This document shows positions 3,711 to 14,828 of a stretch of 21,082 nucleotides of DNA, in pieces (within the stretch, counting starts at the first letter, position 1; every line of letters starts with the position of its first letter). Both the position numbers and the translations under genes were made by a program. The stretch spans positions 1-21,082 of IMG/VR virus record IMGVR_UViG_3300046501_000382. One strand, given 5' to 3'. The notes below the pieces were generated by a model. It saw nothing but the letters and a program-made list of their open reading frames with translations. It ran no database searches and was not told where the DNA came from. This DNA comes from a virus.

Positions 3711-4364
3711 TCAAATTTTAATCATTCGAACAAGGCGAACTCTTTGACCAAGTGTTTTACTGTAATGAGTAAAATACCCAGTATACATATCCTGAACCCA
3801 CGCTTCGGTGGTAGGAAATTCGCTAGATGACCAATAATTGTTATTTAGATATGCCTCGGCGCCACCCGGCATAAAAGCAGCAACATCGGTTTGTACCGGG
3901 CTTGACGCGGTATAGGCCGGTGTATTTGGATCAGCATGTGCGTTGCTGGTTGTACCGGGGCCACCAGTGTTGTTGGCATCGGGGCCTGTTTTAAGATTGC
4001 GGTAAATCATTTCGTTCTGATATCTGGCCCCAATGAACCAGTCTGTGTAGCCGCCGATCCCACCTCCATTATTCACTTGCTGCATAAAGTCTGCAATTGG
4101 CGAAACCCCCGCCCCTAATGCTGCAAGAGCCGCACTATTGCTAGCACCATCCCAAGCACTCCCTGCACCGGATGTTGATAAATTACTACTCCTATAACTC
4201 AGGGCGCCGTTGAATTCGCCTTGGGCTTTTGGGGCAACGATCAAGGCATATTTGTTGCCATCACCCGGAGCCATTCGCCCAACATAAAAGCCGCCAGCAA
4301 AGGGAGTTCCGGGGATGGTGGGAACATTAAGACCGCCGCCCATTAGGGCCCATGCAAGTCTCAC
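3711..4364 (-). CDS. Phage tail adhesin-like protein with DUF1566 (C-type-lectin-like) C-terminus
   Basis: I chose a GTG start at 4364. Its GTGA overlaps the stop of the tail fibre by four bases, and AGGGG lies about eight bases upstream, giving about 217 aa starting MRLAWALMGGGLNVPTIPGT. An ATG at 4343 is the alternative. Residues near 20-45 hold PFAGGFYVGRM and YALIVAPKAQGEF. The C-terminus has AEAYLNNNYWSSSEFP, EAWVQDMYTGYF and a terminal GQRVRLVRMIKI. WSSSE, xAWVQDM and RVRLVR are the signature of the DUF1566/Lcl C-terminal domain, a C-type-lectin-like fold used for surface binding. Its place right after the fibre suggests a receptor-recognition tip. The region is AT-richer than the head genes, common for exchanged host-range genes. 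Specific binding is inferred. Confidence 0.75.
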   Translation of the reverse strand: MRLAWALMGGGLNVPTIPGTPFAGGFYVGRMAPGDGNKYALIVAPKAQGEFNGALSYRSSNLSTSGAGSAWDGASNSAALAALGAGVSPIADFMQQVNNGGGIGGYTDWFIGARYQNEMIYRNLKTGPDANNTGGPGTTSNAHADPNTPAYTASSPVQTDVAAFMPGGAEAYLNNNYWSSSEFPTTEAWVQDMYTGYFTHYSKTLGQRVRLVRMIKI

Positions 4365-5548
4365 GACCCAGCCCCTACACGACCAAACCATGCAGTGCCA
4401 TTCACAGTACTGAAAACATATTCTGTAATTTTACCTGCGGCTGGCGCTGGTGCGGCAACCCAGTTCGGTGTCAACCAGGTGATTCCGGGAAACCAGGTTA
4501 ATGCATAGGCCGTCGTACCTTGGCGAATGCGAACCACGATTGTTAATGTTTCACCAGCCAAGCTTGGTGAATTTGCAACGGATAGTGTTGTTGCTGTTGT
4601 TAACTGAAGATCAAAAACAGAGTAACTAGATAAATCCAATACTTGCGCAGCGGCAGCGGCAGCGTTAATTGATTTGTCGAGATATAAAGGAATGCTAAGA
4701 ATGTGGCTCCATACCTCACTCAAAGTATCCTCACTGGGGGTGAGTGGTCTGCGTTTCATACTGGTTTTATTGGGTCTGGTTAAATCCTGCCATGCACTCC
4801 AGACGCCACCGATATTAGATCGTAACCATACCTTAGCATAGCCATCAGAAAAGAATAATTGACTAATACGAGAATCGGCCTGAAAGGCTCTGCCGCTTAC
4901 AAGGATAGTACCCCAAGTTTCACCGGGGGGCTTGGTGCCGCTAGTACCAGTAGCCGAGATTGCATACCAGCCATTAGTGAGAGTTGTGAAATTATCCATA
5001 TCTGCAATGCTGGTCATTACTGCCGGGCCACCGCCGAGCAGACCGCGTGCAGCTACCGAAAGGTTATCGACAAGATTTAATCCAATGTCTGACTTGTTGA
5101 GAACAGGAGCACCAGTCTTGCCGTTGACACTAGTCACCGGCCCGCTCGCAATGCTATCGGCTGCATCTTGTGCCCGATTTGCCTGTGCAAGTGCAGTGCC
5201 CGCGCTATTGCTGGCAGCAGTGGCGCTACCAGCGGCGGCGTTCTTTGAAGTGTTGGCCGCCGTGGCCGAGGCGGCAGCATTGGTTTCGCTCGTTGCCGCA
5301 TTCGTCTTGGACGTATTGGCCGCCGTGGCCGAGTTTGCGGCGTTGGTTGCACTTGTCGCGGCGGTGGTAGCGCTGCCAGCCGCAGCATTCTTCGACGTGT
5401 TTGCCGCAGATGCGCTTGCATCGGCAGCGTTGGCCACCGTGTTGACCTCTTGGGAAAACGTAGGCAGCTTTTGCGCAAAGAACGTATCCACGTCGGTTTT
5501 GAACGTTGACGCTGTCCGGTCAAGCGCTGGAAGGGGAGTAACTGCCAT
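4361..5548 (-). CDS. Phage tail fibre with heptad repeats and pyocin-knob domain
   Basis: This 395-aa protein starts at ATG 5548, sharing one base (TAATG) with the previous stop, with GAGGG about ten bases upstream. Residues 1-40 are a conserved-looking attachment region (FKTDVDTFFAQKLPTFSQEV). Residues about 45-119 are some eleven 7-residue repeats of the type SATAANT/SKNAAAG, the phage-fibre heptad repeat expected to form a trimeric coiled-coil shaft. A short SVNGKTGAPV linker follows. Residues about 165-265 (DNFTTLTNGWYAISA, then WLRSNIGGVWSAWQDL) match the pyocin-knob type. The C-terminal 100 residues are a beta-rich domain ending in TAWFGRVGAGS. The knob domain is typical of R-pyocins and Pseudomonas phage fibres. 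It should be a distal, host-contacting tail part, working with the overlapping DUF1566 protein. Confidence 0.85.
   Translation of the reverse strand: MAVTPLPALDRTASTFKTDVDTFFAQKLPTFSQEVNTVANAADASASAANTSKNAAAGSATTAATSATNAANSATAANTSKTNAATSETNAAASATAANTSKNAAAGSATAASNSAGTALAQANRAQDAADSIASGPVTSVNGKTGAPVLNKSDIGLNLVDNLSVAARGLLGGGPAVMTSIADMDNFTTLTNGWYAISATGTSGTKPPGETWGTILVSGRAFQADSRISQLFFSDGYAKVWLRSNIGGVWSAWQDLTRPNKTSMKRRPLTPSEDTLSEVWSHILSIPLYLDKSINAAAAAAQVLDLSSYSVFDLQLTTATTLSVANSPSLAGETLTIVVRIRQGTTAYALTWFPGITWLTPNWVAAPAPAAGKITEYVFSTVNGTAWFGRVGAGS
5192..5416 (-). repeat. Heptad-coding repeat tract in the tail fibre gene
   Basis: The tract encodes about eleven Ala/Ser/Thr/Asn-rich heptads. At DNA level an exact 18-base block (plus strand ttggccgccgtggccgag) occurs at 5253-5270 and again at 5316-5333, a period of 63 bases or 21 residues. 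Near copies flank it. Such tracts can change length by slippage or recombination, altering shaft length. Confidence 0.8.
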
Positions 5549-6456
5549 TAGATAAGGCCCTCGATATCAAGCGAGCAGAGGTGGTATTCGGGATAGGTGA
5601 TGTCAATGTTGAAGCTGCTGAAAAAGCCGTAGATCAGCAACGGCTCATAGCCGACCTCCTCCGTGGCGATGTAGACGCAGGGCGTAGCCCGTAGCGCGGC
5701 CAGCGTTCGATAGATGCGGTTGAACGTACCCAGGGTGGTCAACATCGTGAAGCTGCCCTTCTTGCTGTAGGCACGCTCCAGAATCACCGTGTTGCCAAAC
5801 TCATCGCGCTCCTTGCGGCTGTAGTCGTCGATCCCCACCGAGGCACCGGCTTGGGTTTCCCCTAGGTCGCTGATCAGGCCAGGCTTGATCACACCTACCG
5901 AGACGGTTCCAATGGTGGACGTAAGGCTGACCGTCAGTTCAGCGCTCGCGTACTGGCCTGGCAGGTCCGTGATAACCACGTCGGTGCGCAGATCCAGCTC
6001 CGTGAAAAACCAGTCAAAGATCGTCTCGATGTCGGTGACTTCGAGGTCGATCCTGTTCTGATACACCACGGTGCCTCCCGCACCGTCCTTCATGGTCACG
6101 TCGACGTAACGCCCCGACAACTCAAACAGCGCCAGGCTGTCCGTGAACCCCGTGCGCAGAACGTACGTGAGTGGAGACGGCCCACTGGCCAATGTGCCAA
6201 CCACGTTGTCGAAAGGCGCCCAGCGCTTTGTCGGGCCTACATCAAGCCAAACTGCTGGGGTAGCCGCATCAACTTCGGGGGCAACAGTTCCCGCCCCCGC
6301 AACCAGCCGTTCATAGACCTTGTGAACGCTCAACCGGATGACCCTGGCGCCGACGGCGTAGGTGGTCCCTGACACCCACGCCGGGTAATCATTTTCGGCA
6401 ACAGTGGAACTCACCAACATCGAATCCATCATTTGATGCGGCTTGATAATCTTCAT
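5548..6456 (-). CDS. Phage tail tip/baseplate-type protein, 302 aa
   Basis: The start is ATG 6456, overlapping the tape measure stop as ATGA, with AAGGA eight bases upstream. The protein opens MKIIKPHQMMDSMLVSSTVA, a start I recall from proteins encoded just after the tape measure gene in Pseudomonas and related phages. Residues about 24-75 (YPAWVSGTTYAVGARVI, then KVYERL) resemble a small carbohydrate-binding module with the pattern W-x-x-GTxYxxGxxV, as in CBM5/12 domains. Later segments are strand-rich, including RYVDVTMKD and a C-terminal YPEYHLCSLDIEGLI. The position after the tape measure gene is where lambda encodes tail tip proteins, so a distal tail or adaptor role is likely. The carbohydrate-binding idea rests on a short pattern only. 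Confidence 0.7.
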   Translation of the reverse strand: MKIIKPHQMMDSMLVSSTVAENDYPAWVSGTTYAVGARVIRLSVHKVYERLVAGAGTVAPEVDAATPAVWLDVGPTKRWAPFDNVVGTLASGPSPLTYVLRTGFTDSLALFELSGRYVDVTMKDGAGGTVVYQNRIDLEVTDIETIFDWFFTELDLRTDVVITDLPGQYASAELTVSLTSTIGTVSVGVIKPGLISDLGETQAGASVGIDDYSRKERDEFGNTVILERAYSKKGSFTMLTTLGTFNRIYRTLAALRATPCVYIATEEVGYEPLLIYGFFSSFNIDITYPEYHLCSLDIEGLI

Positions 6457-9400
6457 GCCAGTTCCTTAGTGAGCATGGCGTTGCCACCGTCCGTGACCCG
6501 GTCTAAGAGCTTCACGATTTTTCCTCCGTTGAGCGCACCAGCTTTGGTTTCCGCCTGGATCATGTCGAGCCGCGCACCCAAGGCACGAATCTCGGCAGTC
6601 AATCCAGCGTTGGAGCCGACACCGTTGAGCATGCCCGCCGTCTGATTGGCGTTGTAGATTCGGCTAGGGCCGGTGACCTCCAGTTCTGGCCCGTTTTCAC
6701 CGACCAGGCGCAACCCACCGGCGAAGTCGCCGCCCGAGGCATAACCCGGGATCTTGATGGACTCGCCGTTCTTCCTGCCGGCCTTGATCAGTTCGGTCAG
6801 CAGCTGGTCATACGTAAGGGTTCCGTCTGACAAGGCATCGGTCCAGAACCTCAAACCACCTTCATCCGCGTCACGACCGAACGCGGTCTTATAAGCGGTG
6901 TGAACCAGGGCGGCGCTGTTTTCCCAGGTGTTAGCGACCGCACTTCCTGTGCCTGTCCCCGGCATTGCCGACAGAGCCGCTATCACCGCAGAGTTCATTT
7001 GCTGAATGGCCGCCGCCACCGACAGCACCGAAGTGTCGACGCCGTTAAGCGCATCGAGCTGGGATTGCGCGAACGCCAGTTGCGCATCGAACTGAGCGTT
7101 TTGCAGGTCAAAGGCCGCCTTGGCCCGATCGATCTGGTCTTCCAGACTTTTTTGCAGCGCCTGGGCAGCGGTCAGCTGCTTGCCGTTGACAGCCTCCAGA
7201 TCCGCGATCACCCCCGCTGTTCGCCCCTGGTCACGATTGAAGTCTTCCAGCGACGAATACAGGCTGGTGGTGTTGTTGCCGACCACATCCAAGGCGTCGT
7301 CCAACCCGCCAAAATTGGCCAGCGATCCACCCGCCCTTGCCGTTGCGAGTGCGTTTTGCAGCGTGGCCTGAGCCTGCGTGCGAAGCATCTGCACCGCTTT
7401 GCCAGAATCACCCCGCAGCGACTTGAGCGCGGCGCTCAAGCTGCTGCCCACCGAGCTCAGCCCGGACACGTTGTTCGCCGCCGTGCTGGCCATGTCATTG
7501 AGCGAAGCCGTGGTTGCGTTGTACGCATCCTCGACCGCTTTCTGCTGGGCATTGATCGCCCGCTGCACAGCGGAAAAGCTGTTGTTGACCGCCAATTTCA
7601 AGGCGGCCGTTACCGCCGCCGCTGCCTCGGTGGCAGCCTGAGTTGCGGCAGCAGCACTGGCCTCCATGACATCAAAAGCCGCGTCCGCATCGGTGGCCAG
7701 GCTTAGCAGGGAATTAAACAGCGACTTCCCTGCCTCGGTGGTTTGGTCGATAGCGGCCACCATCCCGACAAATCCCGCACGGCTGGACGGTAAGACTACG
7801 CCCAGGGCACCAAACTCCCGGCCCACTCGCGCCAGAGTGTCAGTTGCTTTATCGGTGTCTGTCGCAAACAGTCCGTAGTAGTTCGACCAGGCGCTGGCTG
7901 CGGCATTAGCTGCCGCTTGCGCCGCTTCCGATGCCGCCTGAGCCGCCTCACTGGCAGCCTCCGCCACTGCCTGAGCGCGCTTATCAACCTCCGTGTAATA
8001 GGAGTCCGCCGCCGTGGCCAATCCCATCATGGTGGCGAACATCGCCTGGCCGGCTGCTGTCGTGACGTCAATATCTTCGACCATAGACCGGTAAGCGGTG
8101 CGGGTATCTGGCAACGCAAACCCAAGCCCACCGAACGAGCTTTTCAAGTTGTTGGTCAGGTCGGCAAACTGCTCGTCTGCCGTGAAAAACGCCGAGTAAT
8201 AGCCGTTCACCAGGGTATTAAGCGCATCGACCTTATCTTTCGCCGTAGCTGTCTCGACATCCAAGTCGGCGAGCGAGGCCACGATGTTCAGAATCGCGTC
8301 AGACGCGATCATGCCGGTCTGATCCAGTTTCAGGTTGGCAACGTTGATTTGGCTCAGCGCGGCGTTCACGCCATTGAATCGAGTAAACACCCCTTCAATC
8401 GCCTTGATCACTTCGTCAGCGGTGGTATCCCAGTCGCTGGCAAAGGCAGTGAACTGCGCCTTGAAATACTCGGGCAGCGACTTGGAACTGACGATGGCCT
8501 TGGCCAGGAACGTGCCCATGACGTTATCGTAGTTTTCAGTCAGCGCGGCCGCTACGTCATCGGCGTTGAACTGTTGATGCTCCTCCAGCACGCTGCGGTC
8601 ATCCAGCCGCGAGCCCAACGTTGTGGAATACTTGCCGGAGGTCTTACGCACCTGCAACAAGTTGTAAGCCACCACGTCAGCGCCGTTGCCGATCGTGTCG
8701 TAGAGCATCCCCAGCGTGGTGCTGAATTGCTGCACCACCGACGACATCTGCGCATCGGCAGCCGCACCATACTTCGGCGCCTTGGTTTGCCAGCCCTGCT
8801 GAATGCCGGTGTCGGTGTACTGGCCGTTGACATAACGACCCGTAGCCGAGGTGCTTTGGTCCGGGTATTTCTCCCCGCTGGAAAACAGCTTTCCGGCGCC
8901 CAAAGCACCCAGCGTTGCGCCAATGGCAAATCCAACCGCCGTCCCGATCGGTCCAACAAACGAGCCAATGTAAGCACCGGCCGCCGCGAGCCCGCCGGTC
9001 ACTGCGGCCCCCTTCAGCCCATAGGACTGAAAGCTTTGGAAGATGGTGTAAACACCCTGGATATATCCCAGCACGCTGCTAAGCGTGGCCAGGCCGCTGC
9101 TTGCCGCCGAGGCCGATGCGCTGGCAGCACCCTCAAATGAGACGTTTCCGGCTGCCGCGCTGAACTGTGATGCGTAAGTTGCCGTGCTTTGGCTGATCGA
9201 CGCGGCAATGCTCTCCGAGGTCAGAGTGGCCGTGGAAGCCGCTGCCGCTGATCCAGTGGTGAACGCGCTGGTGATCGCACTCTTGACGTAATCAGCGCCG
9301 TTCGAGAATGCGCCCTCAATACCGTTGCTACTCCAGCCGGACGTAATGGCCTGGCCAAAGTTGCGGCCCGCTACCGTGATGACATTCTTCACGCTGCCCA

Positions 9401-12347
9401 GCAGGCCAGTGATGCCCCCATTGCCACCAAGAGACGACAACAGGCCGCCCCCGCTGTCGCTCGCCGCCAAGCCACCAACGCCAAGCGCGGAGCCGATCTG
9501 AACGATGATCGGTTTGGTGATCGCCATGTGAAGCATTTCAGCCAGGAATTGTTTGAAACTGTTCTTGAGCGTGTCCATGAAGTTGCCGGATTTGCTCAGC
9601 ACTGACTCCCACATGTTCGCAAACGCTTCGTCGATGCGATCGACCGCGCCTTCGGTGAACTTGCCCCATGTTGTTGCGGCGTTCTGGTTCTGCTCATACT
9701 CGACGCCCAGGCGCTGGAGAGCAGCCCGGTATTCACCGGCGCGCTCGGGGTAGAGTTCCATGGCCGCGTTCAGGGCGTTCTGGTCTTCGGTGTAGTCCTT
9801 GAGCAGTTTGGATTGCGGATACAGGCGGTCCATAATGCCGCCAGAGGCGCCCGCCTGCAGAGCCAGCCTGACAGCCTGCTGCTGGGCTTCGTTCGCCGCC
9901 AAGAGCTGCCGATACTCCTCGCTGCCCACCTCGATATTCTTGCCTGCCAGGGCGACGGTCAGCGCTTTCTGCGTGTTGTACGCGGCCAGCGCATCGGCCC
10001 CCATCAAGGTCGCCTTGGCTTGGGCGATCACATCCGCCGTTTCCTTGCCGAGGTCATACGCCGCCTTGCTGACCGCCAGCTTGTCCTGGGCGTCCTGCTG
10101 ATCGTTGATCGCTTTGGTGACAGCAGCGCGAGTGCCCGCGCCGGACTTCAACAGCGCTTCCTCGACCTTTTGCTGCAGCGCAAATTCGCGCGACTTGTCA
10201 GTGCCCAGCAGGTACGCGGCGGCCAGACCGTTCGCGGAAGAAATGGCAATATCGGCCTGTGCCTTAAGGTCACTAAGCGCCTTGGCCTGGTTCTTTGCTT
10301 CGGTCGCCGCTTCCTTTGCAGCACTGGTCCCCCGCTGGGTTTCAGCGGTAGCAGCCTTGTCCGCCTCTTTTTGCTCGTCTATCGCCTTGGCGCGCGCCCG
10401 GATTTGCTGGGCCAGCTCGCCTTCGGAATCAATTTTCTGATCCGTGATCTGCCGTTCTGCAGCCTCGGCGGCGGTTTTATCCTTGAGCGCCGCATACTGC
10501 TTGTCGAGCTGGTCAAGGTACTTCTGGCCCGCCGCATCGGCCGCAGCTTTTGCAGCATTGTTTTGCAACTGAGCATTTGTATTGGTGTTGGTCGCGCCGC
10601 TGAGCTGATCGAAGACCTGCGTTTGCTTGGCCAATGTATCGGAAAGATCAGAAACCGTGATCTGCCCTTGCTCAACCGCCTGGGCCATTTGCTCAGTTAC
10701 GCCTGGAATGGCGCGCAGCTGGTCGGCTACGGACTTCCAATCGACGGAAATGCCGCTGGCGGAATCCTTCGAAGCCTGGCGAACCAGATCCAGGGCGTGC
10801 TGAGCGTCATCCGGCAACGACACCAGACCGGCCATGAAACCGTCTGCGCCAGCAGCTCCCATGTTCCGCAAATCGCTTTCAAACTTGTCAGCGATACCGC
10901 CCGAAACTTGACCCAGCTTTTCTTTGGTGCTGTCGATTTCGGTGCGCAATTCACGAAGCGTCACCGACTGTGTGGCGCGGTTGAGCTTATCGAAACGATC
11001 GATGAGCTTTTCCATTGGATCGGCCAGGTCGCCGAGTTTCTTTTCAAGCGTGCTTGTGTTGTCGCGAAGCGTGAGAAAAGCAGTTGCCGCGCCGACGGCG
11101 AGCATGGCGATACCAACTGGACCACCCAACAAGCCAAGCAACGTGCGGCCCGTTCCGACGATTCCCGCCTGAGCAGCCGCCACAGCATTGGTGGCGCGAG
11201 TTTCCGCAAGACGCGCCTCGGCCAATTGCAAAGAGAGCTGGGTTTGAACCGCAGTGCCCTTGGCTGCAACGGCTTCTTTTTCAGCGAGGAATACTACGGT
11301 TTGCGCTTTCTGCTGTTCCGCTTGCGCAGCAATGAGAATAGCAGTGGCCTGAGCGCGTCGAGCCAGAGCGTCCTCAATAGACGCCTTGGTCGCCAGTACA
11401 GAGCCGGCGACTGAGACAGCCATGCCTCGGGCGTATACCGCGAGAGCACCCGCCGCAGCGACGCCGGCCACTTCGGCAAGTGTTCCGAAATTGTCCGCGA
11501 GAACGGCAATCCCTGACGCAAGAACCCCGGTCCCATCAGTGCTTTCGTTTAGCTGGCCGACATACACCGTAAACGCATTGTTCAGCGCAACCAGCGCATC
11601 ACGAACCGCAACACCCATGCTGTCAGCGAGAAGGCCGTTGGCCGCCGCGCTTTTCTGCAAACCGTCAGTGAGAACTTCAAGGCTCAGCTGGCCCTGGGCG
11701 CCCAAACTCTTGAGCTCTTCGGCTGACCGGCCAGTGGCTTCTGCCAAGGTTGCAACAATAGTCGGCATGGCAGCTAAAATGGCTTGCCACGAATCCGCGT
11801 CTACCTTTCCTGTTTGGAGGGATTTGGAATAAGCATCAATGGCCGAACTGGCTTTGTCAGCAGACGCCGAGTTTGTCACCAGCAGGTAGCTGAAGCTGTC
11901 CATGACATCCATAGACTGGCCCGCGCTAAGCCCCATCGACCGCAGACTGTCAGAGGTGCGGATGTAAAGTTCCTGCGCCTCCTCTAGCGGACGATAAGTG
12001 CGGTTCGCCGTTGCCAGCAATCGCTCCTGGACGGTGTTGTATTCGCCGAAGCTTTTGGTAGCCTGCCCGATGCGATCAGACATTTGTGAATATGAGTCAG
12101 CGGTCTTGATAACAGTGGCGATAGAGGCCGCACCGATTGCAGCCGCCAACGCGCCTTTGATGAGACCGCCAGCGCTTTGAGCGCTCGCACCTGCGCGATC
12201 AAATGCTGTGTCGATACGGCCAAGGCTGGAATCCATTTTTCCGGCCGATTGCGCGACCGCAGCTTCGCCTCGGGCGATCTCTTGGCGAAGCTGCGCTGTT
12301 GTCGCCTCGATGCGAATCAACATGCCTTGCACGTCAGCGTCAGCCAT
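6453..12347 (-). CDS. Tail tape measure protein
   Basis: This 1964-aa protein starts at ATG 12347 with GGAGAAAGTA upstream. It spans the tail tube lumen, sets tail length and takes part in DNA ejection. Residues 1-260 match the tape-measure N-terminal domain (YSQMSDRIGQATKSFGEY, then RTYRPLEEAQELYIRTSDSL). Hydrophobic stretches lie near residues 60-80, 400-425 and 1109-1152. Between them are long Ala/Gln-rich coiled-coil segments. A conserved helix block is at about 889-955 (FTEGAVDRIDEAFANMWESV). Two related segments at about 1397-1451 and 1502-1557 form an internal duplication. Near the C-terminus is a DUF4214-like stretch (TAFGRDADEGGLRFWTDAL, about 1812-1856), then LVGENGPELEVTGPSRIYNA, the usual tape measure C-terminal motif. 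It is more than twice the length of lambda gpH. Its neighbours are the accessory cassette upstream and the tip gene downstream. Confidence 0.95.
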   Translation of the reverse strand: MADADVQGMLIRIEATTAQLRQEIARGEAAVAQSAGKMDSSLGRIDTAFDRAGASAQSAGGLIKGALAAAIGAASIATVIKTADSYSQMSDRIGQATKSFGEYNTVQERLLATANRTYRPLEEAQELYIRTSDSLRSMGLSAGQSMDVMDSFSYLLVTNSASADKASSAIDAYSKSLQTGKVDADSWQAILAAMPTIVATLAEATGRSAEELKSLGAQGQLSLEVLTDGLQKSAAANGLLADSMGVAVRDALVALNNAFTVYVGQLNESTDGTGVLASGIAVLADNFGTLAEVAGVAAAGALAVYARGMAVSVAGSVLATKASIEDALARRAQATAILIAAQAEQQKAQTVVFLAEKEAVAAKGTAVQTQLSLQLAEARLAETRATNAVAAAQAGIVGTGRTLLGLLGGPVGIAMLAVGAATAFLTLRDNTSTLEKKLGDLADPMEKLIDRFDKLNRATQSVTLRELRTEIDSTKEKLGQVSGGIADKFESDLRNMGAAGADGFMAGLVSLPDDAQHALDLVRQASKDSASGISVDWKSVADQLRAIPGVTEQMAQAVEQGQITVSDLSDTLAKQTQVFDQLSGATNTNTNAQLQNNAAKAAADAAGQKYLDQLDKQYAALKDKTAAEAAERQITDQKIDSEGELAQQIRARAKAIDEQKEADKAATAETQRGTSAAKEAATEAKNQAKALSDLKAQADIAISSANGLAAAYLLGTDKSREFALQQKVEEALLKSGAGTRAAVTKAINDQQDAQDKLAVSKAAYDLGKETADVIAQAKATLMGADALAAYNTQKALTVALAGKNIEVGSEEYRQLLAANEAQQQAVRLALQAGASGGIMDRLYPQSKLLKDYTEDQNALNAAMELYPERAGEYRAALQRLGVEYEQNQNAATTWGKFTEGAVDRIDEAFANMWESVLSKSGNFMDTLKNSFKQFLAEMLHMAITKPIIVQIGSALGVGGLAASDSGGGLLSSLGGNGGITGLLGSVKNVITVAGRNFGQAITSGWSSNGIEGAFSNGADYVKSAITSAFTTGSAAAASTATLTSESIAASISQSTATYASQFSAAAGNVSFEGAASASASAASSGLATLSSVLGYIQGVYTIFQSFQSYGLKGAAVTGGLAAAGAYIGSFVGPIGTAVGFAIGATLGALGAGKLFSSGEKYPDQSTSATGRYVNGQYTDTGIQQGWQTKAPKYGAAADAQMSSVVQQFSTTLGMLYDTIGNGADVVAYNLLQVRKTSGKYSTTLGSRLDDRSVLEEHQQFNADDVAAALTENYDNVMGTFLAKAIVSSKSLPEYFKAQFTAFASDWDTTADEVIKAIEGVFTRFNGVNAALSQINVANLKLDQTGMIASDAILNIVASLADLDVETATAKDKVDALNTLVNGYYSAFFTADEQFADLTNNLKSSFGGLGFALPDTRTAYRSMVEDIDVTTAAGQAMFATMMGLATAADSYYTEVDKRAQAVAEAASEAAQAASEAAQAAANAAASAWSNYYGLFATDTDKATDTLARVGREFGALGVVLPSSRAGFVGMVAAIDQTTEAGKSLFNSLLSLATDADAAFDVMEASAAAATQAATEAAAAVTAALKLAVNNSFSAVQRAINAQQKAVEDAYNATTASLNDMASTAANNVSGLSSVGSSLSAALKSLRGDSGKAVQMLRTQAQATLQNALATARAGGSLANFGGLDDALDVVGNNTTSLYSSLEDFNRDQGRTAGVIADLEAVNGKQLTAAQALQKSLEDQIDRAKAAFDLQNAQFDAQLAFAQSQLDALNGVDTSVLSVAAAIQQMNSAVIAALSAMPGTGTGSAVANTWENSAALVHTAYKTAFGRDADEGGLRFWTDALSDGTLTYDQLLTELIKAGRKNGESIKIPGYASGGDFAGGLRLVGENGPELEVTGPSRIYNANQTAGMLNGVGSNAGLTAEIRALGARLDMIQAETKAGALNGGKIVKLLDRVTDGGNAMLTKELA
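7675..8155 (-). repeat. Internal protein duplication in the tape measure gene
   Basis: Two segments of about 55 residues align without large gaps. The first reads FGGLGFALPDTRTAYRSMV then IDVTTAAGQAMFATMMGLAT. The second reads FGALGVVLPSSRAGFVGMV then IDQTTEAGKSLFNSLLSLAT. They are separated by an Ala-rich helix. The DNA is diverged, so the duplication is old or kept by selection for the protein pattern. Confidence 0.75.
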
Positions 12348-12385: not shown

Positions 12386-12403
12386 CATGGTGAAATTATT
12401 GAA

Positions 12404-12751
12404 TTAGAAAATTGCTAGATCCAGTGCGCGCCAGATATTTTTACCTGCGGTCTTTTGCATCACTACTGTGTAGTGATTCCTAACTGTCCCGCCAAAGCCG
12501 TTCTGAGCATCGACGTATGCGCTTATGAAGTGCCTGCACTCAGTAAACGGCCTCTGCTGTTCTGCCTTTACCCCCACATCATTGATGTAGGGAAAAGATG
12601 CTGTCGATGGCGATTTCAGCCGTTGTTTAACAAAGTTCTGTGACATCACAAATGCCGTGGTGGTGTTGTTGCATGCTGCGGCTTCCTTTTCTTCCGGTGA
12701 ACTACAGCCGGATAAAGCCATGGCAAAACATAGCGCGCTAATTCCTTTCAT
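12404..12751 (-). CDS. Small predicted lipoprotein upstream of the tape measure gene (moron-like)
   Basis: The start is ATG 12751 with GGGGAAGCGGT upstream. An earlier GTG at 12805 is unlikely because it would bury the signal peptide. The 115-aa product begins MKGISALCFAMALSGCSSPE, a type II signal peptide with lipobox LSGC; Cys16 is the lipidation site. The mature domain contains FVKQRLKSPSTASFPYIN and later YVDAQNGFGGTVRNHYTVVM, ending in IWRALDLAIF. This KSPSTAxFP plus SYVDAQNxFG pattern occurs, from memory, in small exported proteins of proteobacteria and prophages. I do not know its function. It is the last gene of the accessory cassette, carries its own downstream terminator and has a candidate promoter upstream. 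That architecture fits a moron gene expressed independently of the late operon. Confidence 0.75.
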   Translation of the reverse strand: MKGISALCFAMALSGCSSPEEKEAAACNNTTTAFVMSQNFVKQRLKSPSTASFPYINDVGVKAEQQRPFTECRHFISAYVDAQNGFGGTVRNHYTVVMQKTAGKNIWRALDLAIF

Positions 12752-12776
12752 ACCGCTTCCCCTGTTGGTCAGCGGC

Positions 12777-12805
12777 AATCTACCACCATCAACAGGAAGC
12801 GGCAA
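12777..12805 (-). promoter_or_regulatory. Candidate sigma-70 promoter for the 12404-12751 lipoprotein
   Basis: The minus strand has TTGCCG (12805-12800), a 17-base spacer, and TAGATT (12782-12777). Each hexamer matches consensus at four of six positions. Predicted transcription would begin about 20 bases before the ATG. With the terminator at 12363-12385 this would make a self-contained unit. The hexamers are only moderate, so this is tentative. Confidence 0.35.
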
Positions 12806-13016
12806 AACCCAGCTCAGACGGGGGCTTTGTCTGCAAATGGTCAGATGACGTCGAGTGGCCTACTACGTCAGCGCTCCGATGAATACGACCTGGGGAACCT
12901 CCCGAAATCCTACGATATTTTCGTATCAATGCAGAAAGCCCAGTGCGGGGCAGGGTTCCATCTCGAAATTGGGAACGTAACAGTCAAAACACGCGGCGCA
13001 GGTCTGTGATTGGACA
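12806..13016. other. Gap between lipoprotein and DUF4236 genes, with a doubtful short plus-strand ORF
   Basis: No convincing gene is seen. On the plus strand a 60-codon frame runs from a TTG at 12827 to 13009 after a GGGGG stretch. It would encode a soluble-looking peptide (RQRSDEYDLGNLPKSYDIF in the middle). I have no family match and the start is weak. A short palindrome (tacgatattttcgta) lies near 12912-12926. Confidence 0.3.
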
Positions 13017-13298
13017 TCATTTGAAAATCAACACCAGAACTATCCCAATTATCATCCACGTCACGACATGAGCCCAAATAGGGGGCTTGGCTCCTGCTGC
13101 TGCGCCTCTTTTGTTAGGCCTATAAGTTTTGGAAGCAGACAACCCAGTACCAACGAGGCTAGTTGTGACTTTGGTCCCGCGCTTACTTAGATTGGCTGTA
13201 ACGCCTTTTCCGCCAATCGAGGTACTAATGCCGCTCTTGCTGACATTGAGTCGCAAGCCTGGGGCAACTTTAAAACTCTTTCTAATTCGCAGCGCCAT
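13017..13298 (-). CDS. DUF4236 family small membrane protein
   Basis: This 93-aa protein starts at ATG 13298 with CAAGGA about ten bases upstream. The N-terminal 50 residues read MALRIRKSFKVAPGLRLNVS, then KSGISTSIGGKGVTANLSK and GTGLSASKTY. This is the DUF4236 signature (RxRKSxKxAPGxRxNxSKSGxSxSIG, then GTGLS). A basic linker (YRPNKRGAAAG) leads to a C-terminal transmembrane helix (WAHVVTWMIIGIVLVLIFK), so it should be anchored in the inner membrane. The family has no firmly established biochemical role that I know of and is found in bacterial chromosomes and mobile elements. It is transcribed away from the plus-strand hydrolase-like gene. This suggests that the two share the intergenic control region. 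It is not a tail gene, so it belongs to the accessory cassette. Confidence 0.8.
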   Translation of the reverse strand: MALRIRKSFKVAPGLRLNVSKSGISTSIGGKGVTANLSKRGTKVTTSLVGTGLSASKTYRPNKRGAAAGAKPPIWAHVVTWMIIGIVLVLIFK

Positions 13299-13338
13299 TT
13301 CTCGAGTCCTTGAGGTGAAGGAGTGTCACTTCGCTAGC

Positions 13339-13367
13339 ATCGTACCCCTGAGAATATCCCTAGCCAA
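13339..13367 (-). promoter_or_regulatory. Candidate promoter driving the DUF4236 gene
   Basis: In the 160-base divergent gap, the minus strand reads TTGGCT (13367-13362), 17 bases, TACGAT (13344-13339). The start of DUF4236 lies about 40 bases downstream. The match is partial. The same gap also holds a small inverted repeat, gcgac (13404-13408) with gtcgc (13415-13419), that could be an operator. No clear plus-strand promoter was found for the divergent gene. Confidence 0.3.
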
Positions 13368-13458
13368 GCTGTCTACACATACACGCTGGCTGAATGATCA
13401 GTGGCGACGATTCTGTCGCAGAGTTAGCGTTGCGCCTCCTAGTCACCACGGATCGGTC

Positions 13459-14100
13459 ATGTCTTCAATAATTTTTCTTCTTTCACCAGACCAGGCATTC
13501 ATTGCGACCGACACTTTGTCAGTCACTACGGATGGTACACCCCTTAATTTCACCACCAAGGCCTTCGTAGTCCCCCACCTTAAGCTTGTAATCGCGGGAA
13601 CCGGGCTGGCTGGCGTTTCGTCGGCATGGTTTAGGCGCATCAACGAGTCGATGCTTGTGTCGGACATCGATCACTTGAATCATCACACCCAGGTATCGCT
13701 GACTGAGCTCTGCAGTACTGAGTTCTCCAATATCGACGAAGATGAGATCTCCACCACGATCTACCACGTCGGAGTTGGTGCTGACGGCGATATCCACGGC
13801 TACTCCTACAGTTCGAGGTACGGCTTTGAGTCCAGACCGATTGAATACGGATTAAGCATGAAGCCAGGGGCTGGAGTTGAGCCAGACCCCGAATCGCCTC
13901 GCACTTTCATTGAGTTGATGGAGGCGCAGAAAGGTCTGCAGCAACAGGTAGATGCGCCGTCCCGCGTATATATTGGTGGTCAAGCCCAGGTCGTTTCGTT
14001 GGATAAAGCAGGGAATTTCCATATCTTCTATCAGGGAAATATTAGTGACTATGAGGACGACAAGGATGCGATGTACATGGCCTTCAAACGCACCAAGTGA
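13459..14100 (+). CDS. Predicted Ntn-hydrolase-fold protein (HslV/proteasome-beta-like), opposite strand
   Basis: This is the only convincing plus-strand gene here. The frame is open further upstream, but that part is antisense to DUF4236, so I chose ATG 13459 (weak GGATCGG before it), giving 213 aa. The product starts MSSIIFLLSPDQAFIATD. After Met removal, Ser1 aligns with Thr1 of HslV, FIATD with VIAGD placing Asp17 at the same spacing, TTK places Lys33 at the same spacing, and LVIAGTG matches VIAGFAG. A later strand (TTIYHVGVGADGDIHGYSYS) and YGLSMKPG fit the second half of the fold. The alignment to E. coli HslV is from memory. I infer an N-terminal Ser nucleophile hydrolase or a descendant that keeps its fold. 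No unfoldase partner is visible. Similar proteins are, as I recall, annotated as hypothetical in Pseudomonas prophages. Orientation marks it as an accessory gene. Confidence 0.75.
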   Translation: MSSIIFLLSPDQAFIATDTLSVTTDGTPLNFTTKAFVVPHLKLVIAGTGLAGVSSAWFRRINESMLVSDIDHLNHHTQVSLTELCSTEFSNIDEDEISTTIYHVGVGADGDIHGYSYSSRYGFESRPIEYGLSMKPGAGVEPDPESPRTFIELMEAQKGLQQQVDAPSRVYIGGQAQVVSLDKAGNFHIFYQGNISDYEDDKDAMYMAFKRTK

Positions 14101-14195
14101 ACTGATTCTTCACGCTCCCCCTTCGCGCTGAGCACGGCGTAATCCAGCGCAAACATCACAATGTTAGTATCGTGGGGGTTATCCGCGAGCGTGAC
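14101..14195. other. Convergent gap between the plus-strand gene and T
   Basis: The 95 bases separate the end of the plus-strand gene from the end of the frameshifted T region. An imperfect hairpin (gcgctg 14125-14130 with cagcgc 14145-14150, 14-base loop) is present, but without a T tract. No gene or firm terminator is seen. Confidence 0.4.
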
Positions 14196-14462
14196 TCAAT
14201 CCCTTTTCCTACTCATCGCTGCGACCCGAAACCCCATCCTTGCCTCTACGGCCACAGCCTTTTTGTCGACCTTCTCCTTATCCCCGCCTCCGCCGTACGG
14301 GTTCGTATCGATAAGGAACTGTCGCTTGGAATCCCAGGCCATCACGATCTCGACGACGCAGGCGTTCCATGCCTCACTGGGCGGCCAACCGAGCCAGCCG
14401 GTCGCGATGTTGAAAAGTTCGTCGACAATGGTGAGGCTCGGGTCCCGCTTTACTCGTTTCCC
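14196..14462 (-). CDS. Tail assembly chaperone T region, expressed as GT by -1 frameshift
   Basis: This frame lacks a good start of its own and lies -1 relative to G. It is entered at the slippery site G-GGA-AAC (14462-14456), three codons before the G stop ends. The added 86 residues include LTIVDELFNIATGWLGWPPS, EAWNACVVEIVMAWDSKR and a basic C-terminus ending MSRKRD. The GWPPxEAxNxxxxEIxxA pattern resembles T-type extensions in other siphoviruses. The fusion would be about 201 aa. In lambda, gpG and gpGT both bind tape measure and tube proteins during tail assembly, and GT is made at low ratio by the same mechanism. The tape measure gene follows only after the accessory cassette, which is unusual. 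Confidence 0.8.
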   Translation of the reverse strand, partial: GKRVKRDPSLTIVDELFNIATGWLGWPPSEAWNACVVEIVMAWDSKRQFLIDTNPYGGGGDKEKVDKKAVAVEARMGFRVAAMSRKRD

Positions 14463-14800
14463 GACTCAGCCTGCGCTTCAAGCTCGGCCTCAGTTTTGCC
14501 TGCTGGGTTCAGAAAGCCGGACAGGTAGGGGATTACCTGGCTGCCCACATCATTCAGGCCAGCCTCGAACACGGCTTCTTCGATCGGATCGAGCGCGCCT
14601 TTTTTAGCCAGGTTCAGCCCAGTACCAACGCCAATGATGAAGCACACCGAGGACAGGTTGGCCGAGCCCACCGATTGCATCGCAGGCAGGATCCCGCCGA
14701 AACGCCCTTCGATCGCTTTCATGGCTTTGAGAGTCGGTTTGAGAGTGAAAACGTCGTCGCCTAGGGTGACTTCAACGGTACCGTGATTGGTTTTGGACAT
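14450..14800 (-). CDS. Tail assembly chaperone G
   Basis: I chose ATG 14800 (MSKTNHGTVEVTLG) over an ATG four codons earlier because GAGA lies upstream at a suitable distance; 116 aa. The sequence GDDVFTLKPTLKAMKAIEGR followed by FGGILPAMQ resembles the GTA-type tail assembly chaperone family (Phage_TAC_11), where a short beta-strand start leads to a KPTxKAxxxIxxRFGG motif. The C-terminal tail is acidic (KTEAELEAQAESGNE). The role is to coat the tape measure protein and recruit tail tube subunits; the chaperone is absent from the finished tail in lambda. It lies between the tube gene and T, the canonical position. A fraction of ribosomes shift at GGGAAAC to make GT. Confidence 0.85.
   Translation of the reverse strand: MSKTNHGTVEVTLGDDVFTLKPTLKAMKAIEGRFGGILPAMQSVGSANLSSVCFIIGVGTGLNLAKKGALDPIEEAVFEAGLNDVGSQVIPYLSGFLNPAGKTEAELEAQAESGNE
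14456..14462 (-). promoter_or_regulatory. Programmed -1 ribosomal frameshift site GGGAAAC
   Basis: Read in the G frame the minus strand is TCG GGA AAC GAG TAA, giving the heptamer G-GGA-AAC, a canonical X-XXY-YYZ slippery sequence. Lambda uses GGGAAAG at the equivalent place. The G stop follows one codon after the heptamer, and the -1 frame is open for 86 codons. Confidence 0.85.
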
Positions 14801-14828
14801 GGGATATCTCATTTAAGAAAGGGAGAGC

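What the first reader, a model, noticed from the sequence alone, without database searches (positions are those of the whole stretch)
13459..14100. Phage-borne HslV/proteasome-like Ntn hydrolase candidate with Ser nucleophile, on the opposite strand
The plus-strand protein begins Met-Ser-Ser. After Met removal its residues align with E. coli HslV (recalled): Ser1 for Thr1, IATD for IAGD with Asp17, and Lys33, all at exact spacing. The same applies to the buried VIAG strand. In this fold these are the catalytic residues. A proteasome-type hydrolase encoded antisense inside a phage tail operon would be new to me. It could cleave host or phage proteins or peptides, or be an inactive fold used for binding.
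Basis: partly seen in the sequence, partly recalled or inferred. Interest (0 to 1): 0.75.

Follow-up and report, generated by a model that had tools for sequence, protein, structure and literature searches.

The report
Phage-carried proteasome-like enzyme gene
A small gene inserted among a phage's tail genes encodes a real, probably active relative of the proteasome's cutting subunit, part of a rare and mislabelled family passed around by phages and plasmids; phages were already known to carry such enzymes, but what this one does is not known.

Summary
The 213-aa plus-strand ORF (13459-14100) belongs to a rare mobile family (PHROG 13702, E 6e-47). In 11 distinct intact members (closest 34% identical to the window protein), residue 2 is always Ser (4) or Thr (7), and Asp18, Lys34 and Gly47-Thr48-Gly49 never vary. 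After Met removal these are Ser/Thr1, Asp17, Lys33 and the oxyanion-hole Gly. AlphaFold2 models of two members (pLDDT 84.6 and 82.2) match 20S proteasome subunits by Foldseek (best E 1.8e-8 and 2.2e-9, probability 1.00); Anbu is also among the matches of the second.

Eleven related phages lack it there. Other copies sit on IncHI2 and IncX7 conjugative plasmids, in Lactobacillus prophages, and in one Firmicute locus beside Shedu and a type I restriction gene.

Phage-borne proteasome homologues are already published (PMC8665760), so this is not a new kind. The database label "terminase large subunit" is wrong. Most likely it is an active, stand-alone N-terminal-nucleophile hydrolase carried as accessory cargo. 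Activity, assembly and substrate are untested.

The parts
13459..14100 (+). Proteasome-like Ntn-hydrolase gene (213 aa, stop included)
   Evidence: PHROG 13702 E 6.1e-47; model pLDDT 84.6, Foldseek to 20S proteasome beta E 1.8e-8
13462..13464 (+). Ser codon, residue 2; N-terminal nucleophile Ser1 after Met removal
   Evidence: Ser or Thr in 11 of 11 distinct members
13510..13512 (+). Asp18 codon (Asp17 of the mature protein)
   Evidence: Invariant in 11 of 11 members
13558..13560 (+). Lys34 codon (Lys33 of the mature protein)
   Evidence: Invariant in 11 of 11 members
13597..13605 (+). Gly47-Thr48-Gly49; Gly47 is the equivalent of the oxyanion-hole glycine
   Evidence: Invariant in 11 of 11 members; role inferred from the proteasome (PMC8665760)
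13972..13980 (+). Ile172-Gly173-Gly174, family signature before the strand S10
   Evidence: Invariant in 11 of 11 members
12387..14197 (.). Variable cargo insert between the tail chaperone and tape-measure genes; holds three accessory genes
   Evidence: Eleven related phages align on both sides but not inside; GC 50.6% against 57.6% for the window
13017..13298 (-). Small membrane-type DUF4236 protein (93 aa), divergent neighbour in the same insert
   Evidence: PF14020 E 7.3e-17
12404..12805 (-). Putative lipoprotein-like small protein (lipobox-like ALSGC), same insert
   Evidence: PHROG 13160 E 3.1e-15, function unknown; sequence
14450..14812 (-). Tail assembly chaperone-like gene, conserved left flank of the insert
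   Evidence: PHROG 6454 and 2115; 60-90% identical in 14 related viral contigs
6453..12347 (-). Tape-measure gene, conserved right flank of the insert
   Evidence: PHROG 1107 E 2.4e-161

Best explanation
The gene encodes a proteasome-like N-terminal-nucleophile hydrolase carried as accessory cargo by a Pseudomonas-type siphophage, probably temperate. Host methionine aminopeptidase removes Met1 and exposes Ser1; no propeptide is present. Ser1 attacks a peptide or amide bond with help from Asp17 and Lys33, and the Gly46 backbone forms the oxyanion hole. No unfoldase gene is seen linked to it, so it most likely acts alone or as a small self-assembled complex on specific substrates (as BPH or connectase do), and not as a general degradation machine. 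Being in its own orientation inside a swappable insert, it is probably expressed independently of the late tail genes and serves the prophage or its host. Shown: sequence, family, fold by prediction, residue conservation, insert position, purifying selection in relatives. Inferred: Met removal, catalysis, expression, substrate and role. The confidence given is for the family, fold and conserved active site; for the full biological account it would be about 0.4.
For: PHROG 13702 match E 6.1e-47, and all 10 members scanned hit that family. Ser/Thr2, Asp18, Lys34, Gly47-Thr48-Gly49 invariant in 11 distinct members that are 22-34% identical to the window protein. AF2 models of the window protein (pLDDT 84.6, pTM 0.81) and of a Lactobacillus-type member (82.2, 0.82) match proteasome subunits by Foldseek at E 1.8e-8 and 2.2e-9, probability 1.00, with Anbu also in the second list. 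dN/dS about 0.13 between two Lactobacillus-family copies (0.058/0.43). Insert absent from 11 relatives with 77-86% identical tail-tube proteins. Carried also by IncHI2 and IncX7 plasmids, Lactobacillus phages and chromosomal loci.
Against: No experiment. Model depth was only eight sequences and the other models of the first run scored lower (74 to 49 pLDDT). Side-chain geometry was not inspected; the tools give no coordinates. hhalign and hmmsearch found no significant sequence link to HslV. No promoter above chance was found upstream. Several copies are broken, so the gene is dispensable.
Confidence: 0.85

Rival explanations
1. It is a defence or superinfection-exclusion enzyme: the hydrolase cleaves a phage protein (or activates a partner toxin) during infection, protecting the lysogen or plasmid host.
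For: One Firmicute copy lies directly downstream of Shedu SduA (PADLOC E 9.4e-149) with a type I restriction gene (REase_I E 1.3e-154) in the same 8-kb contig piece; the IncX7 copy is about 2 kb from AbiEii (E 1.4e-84) and another Firmicute copy is near a NERD protein. Rare, patchy, mobile, sometimes broken, as defence genes are.
Against: Only one strong defence-island context; plasmid and phage neighbours differ each time and no partner gene is conserved. PADLOC has no matching model. Accessory loci gather defence genes whatever else they carry.
Confidence: 0.25
2. It is a counter-defence or host-takeover protein: the phage or plasmid enzyme cleaves a host defence or regulatory protein on entry.
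For: Carried by phages and conjugative plasmids, both of which must overcome host defence.
Against: In the window it is on the opposite strand to the late genes, and in Lactobacillus phages it lies before the terminase genes; neither is a typical early or leading-region anti-defence position. The chromosomal copy beside Shedu does not fit.
Confidence: 0.15
3. It processes or ligates one specific structural or surface protein of its own element, for example a moron-encoded lipoprotein or membrane protein, as connectase acts on one partner.
For: A neighbouring small membrane or lipoprotein gene recurs, though the proteins are unrelated (window, L016, L022, L027, L056). Another proteasome-like domain found with this profile is fused to a phage tail protein (P0013).
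Against: No neighbour is homologous across loci of different elements, and plasmid copies have none that is obvious.
Confidence: 0.2
4. It is a catalytically dead proteasome-like fold used for binding.
For: Some proteasome subunits (alpha) are inactive; no activity has been measured here.
Against: All catalytic positions invariant, including the residue after the start Met that would expose Ser/Thr1, in 11 divergent members.
Confidence: 0.07
5. It is a terminase large subunit, as PHROGs and the Lj928 and KC5a records state.
For: Database labels only.
Against: 213-230 aa, no terminase Pfam match in any of eight members, proteasome fold. In KC5a the true terminase large subunit is the separate orf35 (Terminase_6N E 1.4e-10), next to Terminase_2 and portal genes.
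Confidence: 0.01

Closest known systems
Proteasome-like family (20S proteasome beta, HslV, BPH, Anbu; PF00227)
   Same: Predicted fold, N-terminal Ser/Thr nucleophile, Asp17, Lys33, oxyanion Gly
   Different: No significant sequence match to HslV or to PF00227; no propeptide; extra C-terminal helix; no linked AAA+ partner seen in the loci examined; mobile-element distribution
PPH and AAH, phage-borne proteasome homologues (Fuchs, Alva and Lupas 2021, PMC8665760)
   Same: Proteasome-like hydrolases encoded by Caudovirales phages and spread by them
   Different: PPH is about 140 residues and lacks helix H2; group I (which holds both) lacks the C-terminal S12/H5 elements. This protein is 213 aa with H1, H2 and a C-terminal helix
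GPH and FC1-FC5 clusters of the same paper (gammaproteobacterial and Firmicute group II proteasome homologues)
   Same: Host range (Gammaproteobacteria and Firmicutes); the profile finds a protein fused to a phage tail domain as described for FC4
   Different: Reference sequences could not be fetched, so identity with GPH or an FC cluster is untested; the paper lists no phage members for these clusters
PHROG 13702
   Same: Same family; all 10 members scanned match it
   Different: Its label 'terminase large subunit' is a wrong annotation
Connectase (archaeal protein ligase)
   Same: Possible way of working: stand-alone proteasome-like enzyme acting on a specific target
   Different: Connectase lacks H1-H2 and has an insertion at S3/S4; the models here have H1-H2 and show no such helical insertion

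Membership tests
Proteasome-like (Ntn hydrolase) family | Alpha-beta-beta-alpha sandwich of proteasome beta type | tested here: met
   Two AF2 models; top Foldseek PDB hits are 20S proteasome subunits, E 1.8e-8 and 2.2e-9, probability 1.00
Proteasome-like (Ntn hydrolase) family | Ser/Thr at mature position 1, Asp17, Lys33, oxyanion Gly near 47 | tested here: met
   11 of 11 distinct members; Gly at mature 46 in the window protein
Proteasome-like (Ntn hydrolase) family | N-terminal nucleophile exposed and catalysis | not testable with these tools
   Needs mass spectrometry and assays
HslV proper | Sequence match to HslV / PF00227 and HslU partner | tested here: not met
   No Pfam match; no significant hmmsearch or hhalign match to HslV; no HslU-like gene seen in the window
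[quoted passage not shown]
   213 aa; helices at 51-64 and 70-88 in the model
AAH / CPH / BPH (group I) | Compact subunit without C-terminal S12/H5 | tested here: not met
   C-terminal helix 198-212 in the model, and 212-223 in the second model; feature as described in PMC8665760
GPH or FC1-FC5 (group II) | Membership of the published sequence clusters | tested here: inconclusive
   A tail-fused protein resembling the FC4 description is found by the family profile at E 1.6e-4; cluster sequences (e.g. WP_152342571.1) could not be obtained
Terminase large subunit (label of PHROG 13702) | Terminase ATPase/nuclease domains | tested here: not met
   None in eight members; true TerL is elsewhere in KC5a
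Anti-phage defence system | Match to a known system or conserved defence neighbourhood | tested here: inconclusive
   No PADLOC match; one strong defence-island context

The most novel reading that the evidence does not exclude
A previously undescribed mobile subfamily of proteasome-like proteases, shared by Gram-negative phages, resistance plasmids and Firmicute prophages, that acts as a single-gene phage-defence or counter-defence enzyme by cutting a specific protein.
Probability: 0.25. Interest if true: 0.75.

Novelty: new member of a known kind. Interest (0 to 1): 0.45.

Why it matters
It corrects a wrong label ('terminase large subunit') that covers a whole PHROG family, and shows that a family with the full proteasome active site travels on phages and on conjugative plasmids, including plasmids named for mcr-9 or NDM-1. 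If its target is found, it would give one of the first functions for the many uncharacterised proteasome homologues of PMC8665760, for which that paper found no genomic context suggesting a function.

Tried and rejected
Pfam, NCBIfam, PADLOC and PDB sequence searches with the window protein gave nothing. Direct pattern scans of viral contigs with the window protein alone found no relative. hhalign against an HslV alignment gave no alignment, also with the global flag; a sequence link to HslV was therefore not shown and the fold rests on structure prediction. A promoter scan found nothing above chance. Terminase identity was rejected. A conserved partner gene was looked for and not found. Assignment to PPH or AAH was rejected on size and helices; GPH/FC could not be tested. 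Relatives of the window genome could not be drawn because it is a virus record.

Full report
Observation. The frame is open from a TTG at 13129, but every homologue starts at the equivalent of the ATG at 13459. After Met removal, Ser is 1, Asp is 17 and Lys is 33, as in real HslV sequences taken from genomes. The VIAG glycine is at 46, one residue later than in those HslV sequences.

Family. No Pfam, NCBIfam, PADLOC or PDB sequence match exists, but PHROG 13702 matches at E 6.1e-47 and all ten members scanned match the same PHROG. Homologues were found on IncHI2 and IncX7 plasmids (about 32% identity, E 5e-27 to 7e-24), in Lactobacillus phages and prophages such as Lj928 and KC5a, in another siphophage-like contig (L016) and in Firmicute chromosomes. 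In deposited phages it is very rare: five records of 50,697, standing for two phages. In sampled genomes it is found in 2 of 398 from the first phylum, 3 of 398 from the second and 4 of 301 of one family (seed genomes included).

Active site. In 11 distinct intact members, residue 2 is Ser (4) or Thr (7); Asp18, Lys34, Gly47, Thr48, Gly49, Tyr102, Ser119, Phe123, Lys135, Pro136, Ile172, Gly173, Gly174 and Asp197 never vary. In the tree, the Ser forms (window, L016 and the two plasmid members) form a clade with 99/97 support; all Firmicute-type members have Thr. Between two Lactobacillus-family copies dN is 0.058 and dS 0.43, so the protein is under purifying selection. Some copies are broken: a stop codon in L020, frameshifts in L032 and in L049/L050, and a decayed copy in L046.

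Fold. The AF2 model of the window protein on an eight-sequence alignment has pLDDT 84.6 and pTM 0.81. Foldseek against the PDB returns 680 matches at E up to 0.001, and the fifty best are all 20S proteasome subunits (best E 1.8e-8, TM about 0.6). A model of a Lactobacillus-type member (pLDDT 82.2) has helices H1-H4 and a C-terminal helix, and matches proteasome subunits and Anbu (best E 2.2e-9). The window protein has a shorter loop where H3 would be. Among viral models, Foldseek finds other phage proteins of 10-16% identity, one annotated HslV.

Position. The gene is not inside a tail gene. It lies in an insert (about 12387-14197) between the tail chaperone and tape-measure genes. Fourteen related viral contigs (60-90% identical chaperone) were found; in the 11 that were compared at DNA level, both flanks match and the insert does not. 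Some of these have only about 300 bp between the genes and others have different small genes. The insert has GC 50.6% against 57.6% for the window and also holds a DUF4236 protein and a lipoprotein-like protein. This is the usual look of a cargo ('moron') site, and explains the opposite strand. Separate expression is inferred only; the promoter scan showed nothing above chance.

Context elsewhere. One Firmicute copy sits directly after Shedu SduA and near a type I restriction gene. The IncX7 copy is about 2 kb from AbiEii. Another Firmicute copy is near NERD and HNH genes. No partner gene is shared across loci of different elements. Defence is thus a lead, not a result.

What is known. Fuchs, Alva and Lupas 2021 (PMC8665760) described 22 new proteasome homologues and showed that PPH and AAH occur in phages; they found no context pointing to function. 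This protein is not PPH (213 aa against about 140; H2 present), and its C-terminal helix does not fit the compact group I. It may belong to GPH or an FC cluster: the profile weakly but significantly finds a protein with a proteasome-like start fused to a phage tail domain (P0013, E 1.6e-4), as that paper says of FC4. The reference sequences could not be fetched, so this is open. The PHROG label 'terminase large subunit' is wrong: no member has a terminase domain, and KC5a's true large subunit is orf35.

Verdict. [quoted passage not shown] membership of a published subfamily is untested. Phage carriage is already known for relatives. Function is open; the likeliest mechanism is a stand-alone, S1-dependent hydrolase acting on a specific substrate.

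Noticed in passing
PHROG 13702; L004 8001-8657; L007 6001-6657: The family is labelled 'terminase large subunit' in PHROGs and in the Lj928 and KC5a records; KC5a's real terminase large subunit is orf35.
   Followed up: yes
L108 1363-2718 (G1547): A 451-aa protein with a proteasome-like N-terminal half (MSS..., GADS, SGT, GIGG) fused to a phage tail-like C-terminal half, downstream of a probable capsid gene; resembles the published FC4 description.
   Followed up: partly
L052 (G606 C103): A proteasome-like gene directly downstream of Shedu SduA and near a type I restriction gene; the contig is masked just after it.
   Followed up: partly
L020 10001-10684, L032 8001-8652, L046, L049/L050: Broken copies of the gene (stop codon, frameshifts, decay) in Lactobacillus-type phages and in chromosomes.
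   Followed up: partly
L054 and L057 (G929): Two copies of the gene with equal scores, 40 kb apart in one genome, possibly two neighbouring prophages.
   Followed up: no
window 12387-14197 and L062, L066, L071, L073, L074: The tail chaperone/tape-measure junction is an insertion hotspot with different small genes (several lipoprotein- or membrane-like) in different related phages.
   Followed up: partly
window 3711-4391: Protein of 226 aa with a weak Lcl_C domain match (below cut-off) next to the probable tail fibre gene; possibly a receptor-binding or variable tip protein.
   Followed up: no
L015: A genome labelled 'Clostridia bacterium MAG' holds an IncHI2-type enterobacterial copy at a contig end; probably contamination or a plasmid fragment binned wrongly.
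   Followed up: no
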